Positions 1-42,737 of a stretch of DNA of 64,000 nucleotides are shown here, piece after piece (the first letter of the stretch is position 1; each line of letters opens with the position of its first letter). This DNA is from Hyunsoonleella ulvae. GTDB taxonomy: Bacteria; Bacteroidota; Bacteroidia; Flavobacteriales; Flavobacteriaceae. Below the pieces are notes generated by a model that was given only the letters and a program-made list of their open reading frames with translations, made no database searches and was not told where the DNA came from. A program made the translations under genes and the position numbers. Where the stretch lies: contig NZ_JAEPJQ010000005.1 in the NCBI RefSeq assembly GCF_016827605.1, positions 1 to 64,000 of the forward strand, given 5' to 3'.

Positions 1-2
1 AT

Positions 3-140
3 GTTGATAACGCTGCGCGTTAGCCAACATTCCAACACCACATTAGCATTATGATATAATTAAAAATAAAATAGTAAATTTAAACTCATCTAAGGTACTT
101 GCTTAAACAATGGCTTTTCATAGGACACGTTGTTACCTGC
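3..140 (-). other. Candidate attC-like site at the end of the HNH cassette
   Basis: This 132-nt leading stretch has no gene. Read on the minus strand it begins with GCAGGTAAC (140-132), just past the stop of the HNH gene, and ends with GCGTTATCAACAT at the window edge. GCAGGTAAC is the exact complement of the GTTACCTGC box that precedes the same gene, which is how an integron cassette is expected to begin and end. The length (~136 nt) matches the neighbouring candidate attC. The internal palindrome is weaker here than in the neighbour, so the call rests mainly on the boxes. A further cassette probably starts at about position 11 and runs out of the window to the left. Confidence 0.5.
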
Positions 141-942
141 TGGCTTTTTCCATTCTTTTTTTAATTTCTTCTATTGAGTAAGGTTCTTTTTTTCGGTGTA
201 TCATAGCGTGACAATTCGGACAAACTGGTCGTAAATCAACTATTGGGTTAACTTTATATTCTTTTCCGATATCAGAGACTTGTTTTAAATGATGGACGTG
301 GATAAAGTTTTTTCCTAATTCGCCATACTCATCCTCAAAATTAAATTCACAAACAGAACAGGATAGTCCATAATGTTCAATACATTTATTTCTTGCGTGT
401 GGATTTCGCTCGTATTTGGTTATTCGGACTTGATTTGGTGTTCCCTCTGTATATACGGTTTGTTCAGAATTTTCATTTTCTTGGAATGGATTTACTCTTA
501 TGTCTTGAGTTGTTAAAAAGTCAAACCAAACTGCTTCAAGTTCAGCTGTTACTTCTGGTTTGATTTCGACACCAGATGATTGAGGTGTCCAATTGACTTG
601 TCCTAAATTCCCTTGGTTCAATAAATTCAGATTTAAAAGTGGTTCTTCGTTTGGGTTTAGAAGAACCTCAAAATCAATCATTACTCTTTTTACTAATCTG
701 CCCGAACCATCCCAATGAGGCGATAAAAACGGATTTGACGTTACAAAACCCGAGCCCATTATTCCTTTCGGTTCTTGCCCTAATCGCATCAAAAATGCTC
801 TGTCGCCAGCTTTAATTTTCTTATGGCTAACAACACTCCATTTTTCATTCGCACGTCCCGTTTGTTCGATTTGGTCAATACTCTCTTCAAGAGTTGTCCA
901 ATCCCATTTTTTAGGGTTCCACGCGAATAAATATGATTTCAT
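133..942 (-). CDS. EVE-like domain plus HNH endonuclease, predicted modified-DNA restriction enzyme
   Basis: The protein has 269 residues. Residues 1-145 start with a Lys-Ser-Tyr-Leu-Phe-Ala-Trp-Asn-Pro stretch typical of EVE/PUA-like base-reading domains. The C-terminal third is a clear zinc-ribbon HNH nuclease: Cys195/Cys198, the catalytic His pair near 217-218, Asn232 and Asp236, Cys241/Cys244 and His245/His249. Fusions of modified-base readers to HNH nucleases are known as modification-dependent restriction enzymes, so phage defence is the likely role; that is inference. The gene starts at ATG 942 and is the only gene in its cassette. It is flanked by the complementary boxes GTTACCTGC (132-140) and GCAGGTAAC (962-970). 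The HNH call is firm; the EVE call is a motif impression. Confidence 0.8.
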   Translation of the reverse strand: MKSYLFAWNPKKWDWTTLEESIDQIEQTGRANEKWSVVSHKKIKAGDRAFLMRLGQEPKGIMGSGFVTSNPFLSPHWDGSGRLVKRVMIDFEVLLNPNEEPLLNLNLLNQGNLGQVNWTPQSSGVEIKPEVTAELEAVWFDFLTTQDIRVNPFQENENSEQTVYTEGTPNQVRITKYERNPHARNKCIEHYGLSCSVCEFNFEDEYGELGKNFIHVHHLKQVSDIGKEYKVNPIVDLRPVCPNCHAMIHRKKEPYSIEEIKKRMEKASR

Positions 943-961
943 ACGGATTTTTGTTCAGCTT

Positions 962-1098
962 GCAGGTAACGGGTTAGTGTATGATATCGTTGCGTGTTTA
1001 GGCACTAAAGTTAGCAAATAATCACGGATAGAAAATTCCAGCGGAATTTTCGTAAGTAAGCCTTTACTAGCAATGAATTATACACAGTGTTGTGCATA
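962..1098 (-). repeat. attC-like imperfect palindrome between two cassettes
   Basis: This 137-nt intergenic element folds almost end to end. The outer arms are 977-993 and 1070-1085 (complementary with one bulge and a few mismatches), a TTAGGC/GCCT pair lies further in, and a perfect 9-bp hairpin GAAAATTCC-AGC-GGAATTTTC sits at 1031-1051. Its two ends are not complementary to each other. The right end TGTTGTGC pairs with the far end of the membrane-protein cassette, and the left end GCAGGTAAC pairs with the far end of the HNH cassette. In known integrons the recombination point lies inside the attC right core, so each cassette carries the partner of its own core. This element fits that rule. 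Confidence 0.72.
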
Positions 1099-1103
1099 GT
1101 GTT

Positions 1104-1547
1104 TTATTTTTTTATCAATTTTATTATTAAAAATGGCATCATTATTCCAATTCCGATTAATATTGTCGAATATAAATCAAAAGGTTCAGCTTTTAAATAA
1201 TTAGGAATCAAAGGATTTGAGTGTTTGGCAGAAAAAACCATTATAAAAAGTCCAATTACAAATACTATAATTACAAAAAAAAGAATAGTCAAAATATCCA
1301 TAGTTAACTCTTTTACTTTAAAATCCTTTCTTGTTGAATTGTAAATCATCCCAAAAAAAGGAATAGAGGCAAAAAGCAAGTAGTCAAGGGTATTTGTTGA
1401 AATTCCAAAAAAATAGTCAGTCAGTTTTTGTAAGTTTTCAGTCAGTTCAATCTGAATTTTTGCTCCAAGTCCAAAATTCAGCGCAATGAAAATCAGTCCG
1501 CAGAGTCCATAAATCAGATATTTTATTTTGTTAGGCGTTTTGTCCAA
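1104..1547 (-). CDS. Four-helix membrane protein, cassette-borne, unknown function
   Basis: The 147-residue protein has about four hydrophobic segments (near residues 10-28, 50-68, 82-105 and 125-144), a short Lys-rich C-terminus and no enzymatic motif that I recognise. Its start overlaps the end of the upstream membrane gene by 17 nt, so the two are translationally linked and may form a complex. The stop lies 6 nt from the attC-like core box at 1087-1098, typical of compact cassette genes. No family assignment is possible by eye. Confidence 0.7.
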   Translation of the reverse strand: MDKTPNKIKYLIYGLCGLIFIALNFGLGAKIQIELTENLQKLTDYFFGISTNTLDYLLFASIPFFGMIYNSTRKDFKVKELTMDILTILFFVIIVFVIGLFIMVFSAKHSNPLIPNYLKAEPFDLYSTILIGIGIMMPFLIIKLIKK

Positions 1548-1968
1548 TATGTTCTTGTTTATTAGGTTTCATTTTCCAAATAATCCAAGTCGCAAAAAAT
1601 GAAATTAATATTAGAGAAATAGAAACTAAGATATCTTTTAATTTCCAAGTTGTACTAGGAACGTAATCACGATGAAAATCTACTAATGAACTAAATATAA
1701 TTTTGTATGTTGTCCAAAGTCCGTGTAGTAAAGCAAATCCGAAGGCTCCAATCCACATTATTTTCTTATTAATAATAATTGGTCCAATTAGTATTAAAAT
1801 CGAAATGATTGTTAAAGTCAACATGTCAATTCTAAATGGACTAAAATCATATTTATATTTTACGAATTTCAATCCGACAAATATCCATAAGAGTAAAATT
1901 CCGCCATAAATCAGACGTTGCTTTTTATTATTTTTCAGATATTCAATTATCGAACTTTCGCTTTTCAA
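1531..1968 (-). CDS. Four-helix membrane protein, first gene of the proximal cassette
   Basis: The 145-residue protein has an N-terminal basic segment, then hydrophobic stretches near residues 18-36, 48-66, 70-90 and 110-130, and a short hydrophilic C-terminus. It begins about 40 nt inside the cassette boundary box TATGCACAACAC (2008-2019) and is the gene nearest the recombinase. It reads away from the recombinase, as the first cassette of an integron does. It overlaps the next membrane gene by 17 nt in another frame. Membrane pairs of this kind could be immunity or stress proteins, but nothing in the sequence decides. Confidence 0.7.
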   Translation of the reverse strand: MKSESSIIEYLKNNKKQRLIYGGILLLWIFVGLKFVKYKYDFSPFRIDMLTLTIISILILIGPIIINKKIMWIGAFGFALLHGLWTTYKIIFSSLVDFHRDYVPSTTWKLKDILVSISLILISFFATWIIWKMKPNKQEHIGQNA

Positions 1969-2007
1969 TTCAGTCGTTTTTCGGTTTTTGAGAATGTTGC
2001 TCTACAT

Positions 2008-2169
2008 TATGCACAACACATATATATGTACAATTGATTGCAATGTAAAAAATATTGTTGAATTTACCTATCATATAATGTTTTCAGTGTCTTAAAGGAA
2101 ATAGCGAGTTGTGTATTTTGTATATCAAAAAAGCGTATATTTAAAAATGATATACAAAATGCACAACTA
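2008..2169. promoter_or_regulatory. Candidate attI region and promoter of the recombinase
   Basis: The stretch holds TATGCACAACAC (2008-2019), the inverted copy of the box at 1087-1098, then AT-rich DNA. It ends with a 20-bp inverted repeat: AGTTGTGTATTTTGTATATC at 2107-2126 against 2149-2168 (one mismatch). Each arm contains a GTTGTG-A-T core like the cassette boundary. The right arm ends one base before the recombinase ATG. In integrons the primary site lies between integrase and first cassette, so this is the expected place for attI. The palindrome could also bind the recombinase or fold in the mRNA. Confidence 0.55.
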
Positions 2170-3237
2170 ATGAAGCTAGATAATTATAAATTTAAGATAG
2201 GAACGCATAGAGGTAAAGATGTTATTTGGATTATCTTTCCTTATAATAAGCAGATGCAGTTTGAATTAAAAAGTAAATTCCCTTCAGTATCATATAGTGG
2301 AAGCAATAAATGTTGGTATTTGCCAGATTTGCCCGTGTTAAGAGCTAAACTGAAAGTGCAGCAAAAGGAAATGGGATATCAGTTTCTTAATAATATCCAT
2401 TCTATTAATAAACAAGCGTTTCTAGATTTTTTAAGTCAACTTCAAATTAAAGCATACAGTATAAATACGCAACGTATTTATATAAAAGAATTTGCTGAAT
2501 TACTTATTTTAATTAATGATTATAGAGTTCAGGATTTATCGCCAAAAAGACTCAAGGATTATTTTTTGTATTGTAGTAAAAATTTGAAAATGAAAGAGCG
2601 GAAAATGAATGGGAAAATAAATGCGATTAAGTTCTATTTCGAACAAGTAATTCATAGACCAAAAATGTTTTTTAATATACCAAGGCCGAAAAAACCTTCT
2701 ACATTACCTAGATTACTTAGTAAATATGATGTAAAACGAATAATAGTTGCAACACCTAATCTTAAGCATAAATTAGCGTTAAAAATTTGTTATGGTTTAG
2801 GTTTGCGAGTGTCTGAGGTTGTAAATATTAAGCTACATCACATCGATAGCACTAGAATGATGGTACACATAGTGGGGGCTAAGGGAAAAAAAGATCGCTA
2901 TGTACCATTACCTAAATCAATTTTAAAGGAACTTAGAACATACTATCAAATTTACAAACCAAAAGAATACTTGTTTGAGGGGGCTTATGGGGGTAGTTAT
3001 TCCAAAAGCAGTGTACAACAAATATTTAGAAAAGCTATGCTTAAGGTAGGTATAAATAAAAAAATAGGTATTCATGGATTGAGACACAGTTATGCAACGC
3101 ACTTGTTAGAATCTGGAGCAGATATGCGTTTTATACAGGAACTCTTGGGACATAATTCCATAAAAACAACACAAGTGTATACCAAAGTATCTAACCGAGC
3201 ACTTAAAAATATTATGAGCCCACTAGACACCCTGTAA
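2170..3237 (+). CDS. Tyrosine recombinase, integron-integrase-like
   Basis: The 355-residue protein has an N-terminal extension of ~80 residues, a SAM-like core-binding domain (about 82-165) and a tyrosine recombinase catalytic domain. The catalytic set is complete: Arg213, Lys in the GAKGKKDR turn (~239), His302-x-x-Arg305, His328 and Tyr337. The C-terminus (IMSPLDTL) resembles the ending of integron integrases. The extra helix that IntI proteins carry between the Lys turn and the His-x-x-Arg box is not visible; the spacing here is that of XerC/XerD. It reads away from the left-facing cassettes, and its start abuts a palindrome containing the putative core site. It ends one base before the convergent photolyase gene, without a visible terminator. 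Confidence 0.85.
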   Translation: MKLDNYKFKIGTHRGKDVIWIIFPYNKQMQFELKSKFPSVSYSGSNKCWYLPDLPVLRAKLKVQQKEMGYQFLNNIHSINKQAFLDFLSQLQIKAYSINTQRIYIKEFAELLILINDYRVQDLSPKRLKDYFLYCSKNLKMKERKMNGKINAIKFYFEQVIHRPKMFFNIPRPKKPSTLPRLLSKYDVKRIIVATPNLKHKLALKICYGLGLRVSEVVNIKLHHIDSTRMMVHIVGAKGKKDRYVPLPKSILKELRTYYQIYKPKEYLFEGAYGGSYSKSSVQQIFRKAMLKVGINKKIGIHGLRHSYATHLLESGADMRFIQELLGHNSIKTTQVYTKVSNRALKNIMSPLDTL

Positions 3238-3238
3238 G

Positions 3239-4543
3239 TTATGCAACAGCTGCTTTGTATACACCTAAGCAGCGCTCTCTGGCAAATTTATGATCTACAA
3301 TAGGCTGTGGATAGGTAAGTTCCTGAAAATTGGGTACCCAGGTTTTAATATATTCTAAATTTTTATCGAACTTTTGTATTTGTGTAGTAGGGTTAAAAAT
3401 TCTAAAGTAAGGTGCAGCATCTACACCAGAGCCTGCTACCCATTGCCAGTTACCTATATTGCTGGCCATCTCGTAATCGTGTAATTTCTCCGCAAAATAG
3501 GCTTCGCCCCAGCGCCAATCTATAAGTAAATGTTTACATAAAAAACTGCCCACTAGCATACGCACCCGGTTATGCATAAATCCTGTTTCGTTTAACTGTC
3601 GCATGCCCGCATCTACTAAAGGGTACCCTGTTTTACCATCACACCAAGCCTTATATTCTGCCTCGTTATTACGCCATTGTATACGGTCGTATTTAGATTT
3701 AAAACTTTTATTTACCGTATGTGGAAAATGCCATAGAATTTGCATAAAAAACTCACGCCAAATCAACTCTTGCCAAAATATCTCATTGTTTTCTGCTATG
3801 GCTTGTTTTATCATTTTACGTACACTTACTGTACCAAAGCGTAAATGTGGCCCCAACCTAGATGTAGCATCCTTCGCAGGGAAATTACGGGTGCTTTCGT
3901 ATTGTTGGATAAGTGTTGGTGTTAGGGTATAGGGTTTAATATTCTGGTTGGACTTTTTAAACCCAATATCTGATAAACTTAAGTTGGGTAATTGTGTATC
4001 TATTACTAAGTTTTTTAAATACGGGTTGGTGTGGTATATTTCTAAATTTTGGGATGTAAATTTGTCTTTCCAGGTTTTCATATAGGGTGTGTAAACCACA
4101 TAAGGGGTGCCATCGCTTTTTACCACTTCGTCTTTTTCAAAAATAACCTGGTCTTTATAACTCTTAAATGCAATATCATCCTGTGCTAATACATTTTCTA
4201 TATCTTTATCTCGTGTTATAGCATAAGGCTCATAATCATGGTTGGTGTAAACGGTTTTAATATTGTAAGTTTCTATTAGGCGCTTGTAAACATCTATAGG
4301 GTTACCATGGTATAAGGCTATGCTGCTATTGTATTTTGTTTGGAGTGTATCACGCATGTGTTGCAATATGTCATGAATAAATGTAACCCTTGCATCGTCT
4401 CGTGGTAGTTTGTCTAGAATTTCAGTATCAAAAATAAAAATAGGAAGTACGGGGTATTCGCCTTTTAGGGCTTCATAAAAGCCTTTATTATCGGCTAATC
4501 TTAAGTCTCTTCTAAACCAAAAAATAGAAATTGGTTGTTTCAT
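3239..4543 (-). CDS. phrB: Class I CPD photolyase
   Basis: The 434-residue FAD flavoprotein is predicted to repair cyclobutane pyrimidine dimers with blue light. The N-terminal alpha/beta antenna domain begins IFWFRRDLRLADN. The FAD-binding helical domain has WQELIWREFF, the Gly-Tyr-Pro-Leu-Val-Asp-Ala-Gly-Met-Arg stretch, and near the end the signature SNIGNWQWVAGSGVDAAPYFRIFNP region (Asn near the flavin and the electron-transfer Trp residues). Length is somewhat short for the family (usual ~450-480) but both domains look complete. It is the last gene of the leftward operon that starts near 9072, 88 nt after the SRPBCC gene, and is one of four photolyase-family genes in this block. Confidence 0.95.
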   Translation of the reverse strand: MKQPISIFWFRRDLRLADNKGFYEALKGEYPVLPIFIFDTEILDKLPRDDARVTFIHDILQHMRDTLQTKYNSSIALYHGNPIDVYKRLIETYNIKTVYTNHDYEPYAITRDKDIENVLAQDDIAFKSYKDQVIFEKDEVVKSDGTPYVVYTPYMKTWKDKFTSQNLEIYHTNPYLKNLVIDTQLPNLSLSDIGFKKSNQNIKPYTLTPTLIQQYESTRNFPAKDATSRLGPHLRFGTVSVRKMIKQAIAENNEIFWQELIWREFFMQILWHFPHTVNKSFKSKYDRIQWRNNEAEYKAWCDGKTGYPLVDAGMRQLNETGFMHNRVRMLVGSFLCKHLLIDWRWGEAYFAEKLHDYEMASNIGNWQWVAGSGVDAAPYFRIFNPTTQIQKFDKNLEYIKTWVPNFQELTYPQPIVDHKFARERCLGVYKAAVA

Positions 4544-7385: not shown

Positions 7386-7607
7386 TTAGATACGCATTTT
7401 TAAACGTTTTTCTACTTTTCGTTTAATTGTGGTTAAGCGTTTCATGATGTCCATGATTTGCTCGTCTTTCTTTACTTTATAAATTTGATTTAAATCTAAA
7501 ATCAATGCTTTAGCTTCTCTGGATATTTTTACGCGATCGCTAGTAGACAATGATTTCATTTTTCTTTGTTCAAATTCTAATGCTCTGTTAATTAATTCTA
7601 ATTCCAT
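7386..7607 (-). CDS. Small helical protein B, paralogue of the 7018-7233 gene
   Basis: The 73-residue protein begins MELELINRALEFEQRK, 4 nt after the folE stop, so it is probably co-translated with it. It is all-helical and Lys/Arg-rich at the end (KRKVEKRLKMRI). It shares nearly every landmark with protein A downstream. The function is not recognised. Its tight link to folE and to photolyases suggests a light- or oxidative-stress accessory role, by context only. Confidence 0.75.
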   Translation of the reverse strand: MELELINRALEFEQRKMKSLSTSDRVKISREAKALILDLNQIYKVKKDEQIMDIMKRLTTIKRKVEKRLKMRI

Positions 7608-41928: not shown

Positions 41929-42330
41929 TTAATTATATCCTCTATTTGCCAAACTTGTCTTCACCGTCACACCAACATACTTTCCAAATTTTTCTGCTAC
42001 TTTCTTTAAATCATTTAAAAACTGTGGCTTTAAATTAGCCACTGAGATTTCCTTTTCATTTAATGTGGCTAATTCTTGCTGGGAATAATATTTAATAATC
42101 AGAGCTTCTACTTCATTACTAAATTTTAGTGTATTAATTTGTGTTTTAATCTCGCTCCATACTTTCTGAGGAACATTAGGGCTTAATTCTTTATAAATTT
42201 CAAATATTTTTTCTGTAATTAGCTTACTTTGTTCCGCTACACCTATTTTTTTTGCTAAAATAGACGATTCTTTTTGAGCATAATTATTCAAACTAAAAAG
42301 AAGTAAAATAGTAAAAAGTATTTTTTTCAT
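41929..42330 (-). CDS. Exported helical protein of unknown function
   Basis: The 133-residue protein has a signal peptide (MKKILFTILLLFSLNNYAQ). The mature part is all-helical with YSQQELATLNEKEISVANLK, which recalls DUF2059-type periplasmic proteins (YtEFTxxEL-like). The end is basic. It lies downstream of the immunity-like gene. Confidence in the family is low. Confidence 0.65.
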   Translation of the reverse strand: MKKILFTILLLFSLNNYAQKESSILAKKIGVAEQSKLITEKIFEIYKELSPNVPQKVWSEIKTQINTLKFSNEVEALIIKYYSQQELATLNEKEISVANLKPQFLNDLKKVAEKFGKYVGVTVKTSLANRGYN

Positions 42331-42332
42331 TA

Positions 42333-42737
42333 TTATTCTAAATTTGGATACTTGTTTTTATCAATTGGGGATTTTATTATTTCTATTTCTGAAAAACCAT
42401 TTAACTTCTTTTTAAATAGTTCAAATAAGAAGCTATTGATTCTAACTCCTTCAAAGCTGTCTTCAAAAACAATTTTCTGTTTAAATTGCAACCAGAATAA
42501 TTCTTGATTTTCAGAACCATATTTTTTTCCTCCATTATCCATTAAAACAATTCTAAATCCTAAAAAATCTGGAATAAAAACCGCTTCAAATTCGTCTCTG
42601 ATTTTTAATTCTTTTCCTCCAAATTGAAGATTATTAAATATTTTTTCAGAAACTATACTAGCAAGCTCATCTAAAGGAAGTGTGGAAAGAATACATAGAT
42701 TTCCAGATATATTAACACGGTCAATTACGTCTATCAT
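42333..42737 (-). CDS. Probable immunity protein for the RHS toxin
   Basis: The 134-residue cytoplasmic protein is mixed alpha/beta with alternating strands (FEAVFIPDFLGFRIVLMDN) and an amphipathic C-terminus. It follows the RHS-toxin gene by 11 nt on the same strand, the standard place for an immunity gene. No family motif is recognised, so the call rests on position and size. Confidence 0.6.
   Translation of the reverse strand: MIDVIDRVNISGNLCILSTLPLDELASIVSEKIFNNLQFGGKELKIRDEFEAVFIPDFLGFRIVLMDNGGKKYGSENQELFWLQFKQKIVFEDSFEGVRINSFLFELFKKKLNGFSEIEIIKSPIDKNKYPNLE

What the first reader, a model, noticed from the sequence alone, without database searches (positions are those of the whole stretch)
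1..3237. Probable integron with atypical integrase at the left edge
Seen: the recombinase reads right, and genes in front of it read left in two compact units separated by ~136-nt palindromic elements. The box at the start of each unit (GTTGTGC at 2011-2019 reverse; GTTACCTGC at 962-970 reverse) is the exact complement of the box at the end of the same unit (1087-1098; 132-140), while the two boxes within one element do not match. Established: in integrons the crossover lies within the right core, so each cassette keeps the complement of its own core. Inference: this is an integron whose integrase lacks the extra IntI helix but has an ~80-residue N-terminal extension. Integrons of this form are little described in Bacteroidota.
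Basis: partly seen in the sequence, partly recalled or inferred. Interest (0 to 1): 0.82.

Follow-up and report, generated by a model that had tools for sequence, protein, structure and literature searches.

The report
Bacteroidota integron without classical IntI integrase
The left edge of the window is a gene-capture platform that works like an integron but is run by a different branch of recombinase and marks its folded DNA sites in a different way, and relatives of it occur across the phylum Bacteroidota.

Summary
A 355-aa tyrosine recombinase (2170-3237) faces an attI-like region and two cassettes reading away from it. The box at each cassette's start is complementary to that at its end (up to 14 nt, one fixed difference). 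The element at 968-1091 is an attC-like imperfect hairpin; that at 1-131 is an IS110 end inserted in an attC. At 80 related recombinases, attC-like sites lie in front in one orientation (101; other strand 1, behind 3, shuffled 0), but 23 of 59 loci with 1 kb in front show none. The recombinase lacks the IntI additional domain (73 of 73 measured relatives) and forms a clade outside IntI. Box-bounded sites carry A.C on the top strand, hence G.T on the bottom, at stem positions 7 and 12 (29 and 36 of 44; top-strand G.T in 0), apparently in place of extrahelical bases. Cargo is diverse; near-identical attCs cross genera. Such sites flank lnu(H) and other resistance genes on Empedobacter and Riemerella plasmids and might explain published homology-free gene uptake in Riemerella. 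Recombination was not tested; the structure job did not finish. Verdict: integron-like, a new variant of a known kind.

The parts
2170..3237 (+). Tyrosine recombinase, 355 aa (integron-type integrase without the IntI additional domain; residues 1-85 are an N-terminal extension)
   Evidence: Pfam Phage_integrase 183-341 and SAM_4 86-164; below the cut-offs of NCBIfam XerA_Arch and TIGR02249; trees; K-motif to HxLRH spacing of 64 residues against 101-106 in IntI
2107..2168 (.). Dyad AGTTGTGTATTTTGTATATCA-20 nt-TGATATACAAAATGCACAACT just before the integrase start codon; possible operator or arm-type binding site
   Evidence: I1; inverted repeat score >=13 in 25 of 80 upstream regions (the window and 79 loci), 0 of 79 shuffles
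2015..2169 (-). attI-like region; crossover inferred at the GTT (2017-2015, minus strand)
   Evidence: 95% identical copy without an integrase gene at C3:1968-2131, with identity starting at the AAC/GTT
1089..2017 (-). Cassette 1: two small ORFs (1531-1968, 145 aa; 1104-1547, 147 aa) without a Pfam family above its cut-off, boxes GTTGTGCATAATGT / GTTGTGCATAGTGT
968..1091 (-). attC of cassette 1 (124 nt, AAC to GTT); its bottom strand is the window + strand
   Evidence: scanner score 15
132..970 (-). Cassette 2: 269-aa protein with an HNH nuclease domain and a sub-threshold EVE match (133-942), boxes GTTACCTGCAAGCT / GTTACCTGCTGGCT
125..131 (-). Left remnant (spacer plus 4 nt of stem) of the attC of cassette 2, cut by an IS
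1..124 (.). End of an IS110-family insertion sequence; contig end
   Evidence: 92-94% identical to the C17 and C16:124k copies; 1455 bp copy with 357-aa transposase on C17

Best explanation
This is a chromosomal integron-like cassette-capture platform. The recombinase excises and inserts circular cassettes. Each cassette is one or two ORFs plus an attC-like hairpin site. Crossover is at the GTT core, so a cassette keeps, at its start, the complement of the box at its own end. The substrate is probably the folded bottom strand of attC recombining with double-stranded attI. The strand is told apart by G.T wobbles at stem positions 7 and 12, and by a third at position 11 of the box in the ring form; on the top strand these become A.C mismatches. 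The recombinase belongs to a Bacteroidota-centred clade that lacks the IntI additional domain and is related to, but outside, IntI. Shown by sequence: box rule, site grammar, strand polarity, association with the recombinase, cassette turnover at one shared site, near-identical attCs in different genera, absent domain, separate clade. Inferred: single-strand folding in the cell, attI x attC catalysis by this enzyme, recognition of wobbles, and binding of the dyad by the N-terminal extension.
For: Box rule: 76 to 1 in polarity upstream of 80 integrases; about 3 expected from the downstream rate, my arithmetic. Nine own-genome cassettes fit exactly; two more (cassette 2 of the window, the first on C17) match 6 of the 7 variable letters. 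attC scanner: 101 sites in front in cassette orientation, 1 on the other strand, 3 behind, 0 in shuffled DNA; 0 sites in three class 1 integron plasmids. Stem table on 44 box-bounded sites, near-copies included, aligned on Watson-Crick pairs only: A.C 29 at position 7 and 36 at position 12, G.T 0 and 0. Bottom strand folds better than top in 5 of 5 sites. Of 88 box pairs, 78 have their longest ORF in the expected direction; median stop-to-AAC distance 16 nt. Cargo is diverse: 63 Pfam families, none in more than 2 of 77 proteins. Cross-genus attCs are up to 99-100% identical. Same locus, different cassettes. Missing domain in 73 of 73 measured; trees. Published: homology-free, site-specific integration of a resistance gene with a 27-bp leader and a 140-bp attC-like tail in R. 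anatipestifer ATCC 11845 (PMC13148043, section 11); a strain of that species (CCUG25054, L128) has this integrase and a rule-abiding cassette.
Against: No recombination was observed here. 23 of 59 loci with at least 1 kb in front show no scanner site, and 7 of 25 with the full 8 kb show none. In Riemerella (L128) and Mucilaginibacter (L148) cassettes or sites lie behind the integrase, and in L128 the scanner itself finds no site: the attC there was read by eye and found again only by DNA similarity. attC sites also occur in genus genomes with no match to the integrase at the cut-off used (G001, G011). The scanner was designed after looking at these loci and rewards the polarity, so its other-strand control is biased; the behind-the-gene and shuffle controls are not. 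It misses 4 of the 47 box-bounded sites at score 12 (one of the four has doubtful bounds). Swapping arms among sites leaves a 29.5 to 7.6 excess of A.C, so composition explains part of the asymmetry. Single bottom strands fold only moderately better than shuffles (z -1.8 to -4.2 in 5 sites). The class 1 control of the stem pattern rests on 2 usable sites of 5 regions given. A promoter for the cassettes was not tested. The structure prediction did not finish.
Confidence: 0.86

Rival explanations
1. It is an ordinary IntI integron whose integrase is merely divergent.
For: TIGR02249 hits at 179 bits in two stretches; profile comparison with IntI gives probability 100 over 274 columns; in the trees IntI is the nearest sampled outside clade.
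Against: No match above the curated cut-off in any of 12 genus genomes; additional domain absent; IntI one clade 100/100 without these proteins; the scanner finds no site in three class 1 plasmids, and the 2 class 1 attCs that my script could bound, of 5 regions, lack the fixed pattern.
Confidence: 0.07
2. The recombinase is a Xer-like or island integrase and the hairpins are RNA elements (terminators) or repeats that happen to lie nearby.
For: The two best matches among solved structures are 4a8e (labelled XerC-like) and 5hxy (XerA), ahead of IntI4; hairpins lie between genes.
Against: The box rule is a recombination signature and no terminator explains it. In sense RNA the conserved pairs would be A.C mismatches, not G.U, so an RNA role on the sense strand is disfavoured. 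A clade with those two XerA-type rows is rejected, AU p 0.003. Sites cluster in front of this gene.
Confidence: 0.03
3. The array is a decayed relic: the sites once moved, but the recombinase no longer acts on them.
For: attI-like copies without integrase on C3 and C17, IS insertions in attCs; 5 of 80 related integrases have a stop.
Against: 75 of 80 related integrases are intact; wobble positions and boxes are kept over wide divergence; different cassettes at the shared photolyase site and 95-100% identical attCs between genera argue for recent movement in the group.
Confidence: 0.1

Closest known systems
Integrons (IntI / attI / attC), including sedentary chromosomal integrons
   Same: Integrase gene beside an attI-like region; arrays of short ORFs each followed by an imperfect palindrome with unequal spacers; GTT core; start box complementary to own end box; diverse cargo; clusters without integrase
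   Different: Recombinase lacks the additional domain and lies outside the IntI clade; box match is 10-14 nt with a fixed A/G difference at position 11 instead of a 7-nt core (the 7-nt core is recalled); polarity marked by G.T wobbles at fixed places instead of extrahelical bases; ~80-residue N-terminal extension and a dyad before its start codon
rAID (recombinase-associated acquired interbacterial defence) arrays of Bacteroidales (PMC12247911, passages seen; Ross 2019 Nature seen only as its reference)
   Same: A B. ovatus plasmid array that looks like rAID has a recombinase in the same broad clade (90/90), co-oriented short genes, and start/end box matches
   Different: Array lies behind the recombinase; intergenic elements are far shorter, begin with ATT instead of GTT and escape the attC scanner; cargo described as immunity genes. 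That this plasmid array is a rAID system is my reading of its annotation
Homology-free uptake of aph(3')-IVb, with lnu(H) and blaRATA cited as parallels, by Riemerella anatipestifer (PMC13148043, section 11 read)
   Same: Insert = gene + 27 bp leader + 140 bp attC-like tail at one chromosomal place; our box pairs have a median leader of 33 nt and 16 nt + ~120-nt attC behind the stop; lnu(H) on an Empedobacter plasmid lies in a rule-abiding cassette
   Different: The paper names no recombinase and its screen found no integron; I did not check where its insertion place lies relative to the integrase gene, nor the aph(3')-IVb sequence; that this integrase does it is my inference
Recombinase-tet(X3) unit of Acinetobacter plasmids ('xerD' in the literature, recalled)
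   Same: Recombinase ~45% identical to the Riemerella one and in the same clade; tet(X3) behind it on the same strand; DNA after tet(X3) 75.6% identical to part of the Riemerella attC
   Different: Remnant below the scanner cut-off, start and end boxes do not match, recombinase annotated at 221 aa

Membership tests
Integron | IntI-type integrase with the additional domain | tested here: not met
   Segment between K motif and HxLRH is 64 residues in 73 of 73 measured family proteins (76 given) against 101-106 in 17 of 20 IntI rows; of the other 3 IntI rows, 2 had no motif found and 1 a mis-hit
Integron | Integrase inside the IntI clade | tested here: not met
   Separate clades, IntI 100/96 and 100/100
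Integron | attC sites: imperfect palindromes with GTT core between successive cassettes | tested here: met
Integron | Start box complementary to the cassette's own end box (crossover in the core) | tested here: met
Integron | attC strand polarity by extrahelical bases | tested here: not met
   8 right-arm and 3 left-arm bulged bases in all over 37 sites, no regular extrahelical base; polarity lies in wobbles and perhaps in the unequal spacers (3 and ~6 nt)
Integron | attI site beside the integrase gene | tested here: met
   Homology of the C3 attI-like copy begins at the AAC/GTT; first cassettes start at the corresponding place in relatives
Integron | Cassettes of few ORFs, mostly one orientation, diverse cargo | tested here: met
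   78 of 88 same direction, 4 opposite, 6 without an ORF of 50 aa
Integron | Promoter Pc driving the cassettes | not tested
   Bacteroidota promoters are not covered by the promoter scan tool; not run
Integron | Integrase-dependent attI x attC recombination | not testable with these tools
   Needs an assay
XerC/XerD/XerA | Groups with Xer recombinases | tested here: not met
   Four Xer rows on the far side of the branch 99/96; clade of the family with the two XerA-type rows rejected, p-AU 0.003
rAID | Recombinase followed by co-oriented immunity-like genes | tested here: not met
   Array is in front of and divergent from the recombinase; cargo is not immunity-like as a set

The most novel reading that the evidence does not exclude
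A second class of integron, widespread in Bacteroidota, branched off before the IntI additional domain arose (or lost it) and solves strand choice with a wobble code instead of extrahelical bases. The same broad recombinase clade drives the rAID immunity arrays of gut Bacteroidales and the uptake and spread of resistance cassettes in Riemerella, Empedobacter and, as a fragment, the tet(X3) unit of Acinetobacter. The additional domain would then not be essential to being an integron.
Probability: 0.5. Interest if true: 0.92.

Novelty: new variant of a known kind. Interest (0 to 1): 0.8.

Why it matters
A survey that selects integrases by the additional domain, as PMC2426708 did (passage seen), would miss these platforms. 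If the system is real, integron function does not need that domain, strand choice can be written as wobble pairs at fixed places, and several unconnected Bacteroidota puzzles (rAID arrays, homology-free resistance gene uptake in Riemerella, the tet(X3) unit) may have one cause. Each claim can be tested directly.

Tried and rejected
Rfam scan of 1-4000: only sub-threshold microRNA matches to the dyad; discarded. A covariance model of attC was planned on the 51-site alignment A3 but not built: the variable central part aligned badly. A scanner of the two arms was written instead. That the C16 array (C16:1-3600) continues the window's array across the IS was considered; the half-stems (GTGT on C19...TTATAC on C16) do not pair perfectly, so the join is left open (by eye). 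'All ~136-nt elements are attC' was rejected for 1-131. A common clade with the two XerA-type rows was rejected by the AU test. Joining L128 (Riemerella) to the 'array in front' layout failed: its cassette is behind the gene. Paper searches on novelty. Integron + Flavobacteriia + attC gave 0 papers; attC + wobble + integron + bottom strand gave 0; in the 15 papers listed of 155 the word Flavobacteriaceae occurs 0 times. Against novelty: PMC9668308 and PMC2426708 (passages) list Bacteroidota or Bacteroidetes/Chlorobi among integron hosts. Subscription journals are not covered. Ross 2019 was not held.
Full report
WHAT IS THERE. The window begins at base 1 of contig C19 of a 4.06 Mb genome. At its left edge a 355-residue tyrosine recombinase (2170-3237, +) has in front of it an attI-like region, two cassettes reading away from it, and an insertion-sequence end. 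Cassette 1 (2017 to 1089) begins GTTGTGCATAATGT and ends with the complement of GTTGTGCATAGTGT. Cassette 2 (970 to 132) begins GTTACCTGCAAGCT and ends with the complement of GTTACCTGCTGGCT. Between them is a 124-nt imperfect palindrome (968-1091). A 1455-bp copy with a 357-aa transposase lies on C17, and in the four junctions examined the element begins 4 nt into the left stem of an attC.

THE BOX RULE IS NOT CHANCE. In 80 loci that encode relatives of the recombinase (best 80 of 234; 78 named as Bacteroidota and two metagenome bins with other labels, my reading of the titles), I counted pairs of GTT-N7 and its exact complement 200-3500 nt apart. In front of the recombinase, 76 of 112 pairs have A at position 11 of the start and G at the same place of the end; 1 has the reverse. 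Behind it (585 kb, both strands, each pair seen twice) the two polarities are 13 and 13 of 116. 34 of the 60 loci with at least 1 kb in front have such a pair. In the own genome nine cassettes obey the exact rule: one on C19, four on C16, two on C3, two on C17; cassette 2 of the window and the first cassette on C17 match 6 of the 7 variable letters. A 12- to 14-nt match with one fixed transition is longer than the 7-nt core of classical integrons (the 7-nt core is recalled).

THE SITES HAVE A COMMON GRAMMAR. From box-bounded sites (47 found; 37 non-redundant used) the arms mostly read: AAC, 3 nt, 6 bp, mismatch, 4 bp, mismatch, 4 or more bp, a variable middle, and about 6 nt before GTT. Aligned on Watson-Crick pairs alone, 44 sites (near-copies included) have A.C at stem position 7 in 29 and at position 12 in 36, and top-strand G.T in none at either position; over all 16 positions A.C is 91 and G.T 6. 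With right arms swapped among sites the interior ratio falls from 65:2 to 29.5:7.6, so composition explains part of it but not all. A.C on the top strand is G.T on the bottom strand: the bottom strand can keep these pairs, the top cannot. In 5 of 5 sites folded, the bottom strand was the more stable. In classical attCs strand choice rests mainly on extrahelical bases (PMC2727003, passages seen); here bulged bases are few (11 in 37 sites). As a control I gave five class 1 regions to the same alignment: 2 yielded a plausible attC and lack the fixed pattern, 1 was bounded wrongly, 2 yielded nothing. The scanner finds no site in three class 1 integron plasmids.

THE SITES GO WITH THE RECOMBINASE. 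A scanner of this grammar finds, at score 13 or more, 101 sites in front of the 80 recombinases in cassette orientation, 1 on the other strand, 3 behind, and 0 in dinucleotide-shuffled DNA; from score 11 up the figures are 114, 6, 7 and 3. The other-strand figure is lowered by design; the other two are fair. The scanner misses 4 of the 47 box-bounded sites at score 12. 36 of 59 loci with at least 1 kb in front have a site (threshold 12.5), and 18 of 25 with the full 8 kb; the rest do not. The three behind are all in one Mucilaginibacter locus. In the 64-kb window it finds 971-1088 (score 15) and one marginal place at 42294-42418 (12.5). A second subfamily with another N-terminus (G003, G005 in the same genus) carries the same sites and boxes behind the gene, co-oriented. 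One attC sequence type is found in all 12 genomes searched of the genus, 1 to 25 copies each, 98 in all. That includes two genomes (G001, G011) without a recombinase match at the cut-off, so clusters without integrase are common.

CASSETTES MOVE. At the one related locus with the same downstream photolyase (80% identity; 1 of 80, Hyunsoonleella aquatilis, L080), the arrays share attC-type DNA and a 22-nt box stretch but no cassette protein at E 1e-3. attCs 95-100% identical occur in different genera (for example Algibacter and Kriegella 99%, Wocania and Maribacter 98%); integrase identity was not computed for each such pair. Of 88 box pairs taken as cassettes, 78 have their longest ORF in the expected direction, 4 opposite, 6 none; median length 780 bp, leader 33 nt, stop to AAC 16 nt; some pairs may be chance. 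Among 77 cargo proteins 63 Pfam families were hit, none in more than two proteins; 16 defence models were hit, each in one.

THE RECOMBINASE IS NOT IntI. Catalytic and SAM-like domains match at residues 183-341 and 86-164. It falls below the cut-offs of both the XerA and the integron-integrase models, and none of 12 genomes of the genus has a match above the latter. The segment that holds the IntI additional domain is missing: K motif to HxLRH is 64 residues in 73 of 73 measured family proteins (76 given) against 101-106 in 17 of 20 IntI. In maximum-likelihood trees the family is one clade (100/99 to 100/100), IntI another (100/96 to 100/100), and the wider clade with the second subfamily has support 99/91, 99/94 and, with B. 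ovatus, Persicobacter, Chryseobacterium-plasmid and IS91-linked recombinases added, 90/90. Xer proteins lie on the far side (99/96), and a clade with the two XerA-type rows is rejected (AU p 0.003). Outgroup sampling is thin (four Xer rows) and one plasmid row was of poor quality. [quoted passage not shown] these proteins are a test of the second half of that sentence.

HOW IT PROBABLY WORKS. Shown: boxes, grammar, polarity, association, turnover. Inferred: the enzyme binds the folded bottom strand of attC, cuts in the GTT core and joins it to double-stranded attI; the ring form, whose boxes pair over 12-14 nt with a third wobble, would be the best substrate, so insertion would be favoured over excision. 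The dyad TTTTGTATATCA...TGATATACAAAA before the start codon (strong in 25 of 80 upstream regions, 0 of 79 shuffles) could be an arm-type site or operator for the N-terminal extension; this is a guess.

LINKS BEYOND THE WINDOW. Riemerella anatipestifer CCUG25054 (L128) has this integrase and one rule-abiding cassette behind it; the scanner does not see its attC. That attC's DNA finds the one after lnu(H) on an Empedobacter plasmid (79% identity), where lnu(H) sits in an exact cassette, and sites beside blaOXA and other resistance genes on a Riemerella plasmid. A 2026 paper (PMC13148043, section 11 read) reports that R. anatipestifer ATCC 11845 takes up aph(3')-IVb at one place without homology, with a 27-bp leader and a 140-bp attC-like tail, by a mechanism 'yet to be fully elucidated', and that screening for integrons found none. 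The lengths fit this system; that this integrase does it is inference, and the insertion place was not compared with the integrase locus. DNA resembling part of that attC (75.6% over 61% of the query) follows tet(X3) on Acinetobacter plasmids, next to a recombinase of this clade, but below the scanner cut-off and without matching boxes. In a Bacteroides ovatus array that looks like rAID, a relaxed search finds 10 start/end box pairs against 1-5 in ten shuffles; by my reading six of them bound successive genes. The scanner finds no site there.

VERDICT. It works like an integron and I would call it integron-like. It fails defining tests of the classical family, the additional domain and membership of the IntI clade, so it is filed as a new variant and not as a member of the IntI family.

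Noticed in passing
window 1-124; L028:5514-6968; L027 1-240; L026 near 4050: An IS110-family element sits in attC sites at one fixed place, 4 nt into the left stem, in the 4 junctions examined; both halves of the attC flank the complete C17 copy. It recalls the IS1111-attC group of classical integrons (recalled, no call).
   Followed up: partly
L025:12630-13673: A second, different IS110-family transposase lies beside the attC at C16:33794, followed on the other strand by a 319-aa cassette-like gene.
   Followed up: no
L027:1968-2131 (C3) and L028 near 7400-7560 (C17): Two attI-like regions with dyad and cassettes but no integrase match on those contigs; the C17 one ends in a start codon followed at once by a stop (by eye).
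   Followed up: partly
L065, L066, L069 (same genus): Second integrase subfamily with a different N-terminus and the array behind the gene; same attC grammar; one copy (L069) holds a stop and another (L066) is short.
   Followed up: partly
L095 6080 and L102 1349 (cassette-strand coordinates): Minimal attC sites of 46 nt with an almost closed hairpin, beside 107-121, 145 and 181-186 nt forms.
   Followed up: no
L273, L274: Recombinases of the same broad clade sit directly before IS91-family transposases in Legionella and Sinorhizobium plasmids.
   Followed up: no
L060-L063: All four other full-length orthologs found in the genus lie within 6.4 kb of a contig start, as in the window: assemblies seem to break at these arrays.
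   Followed up: no
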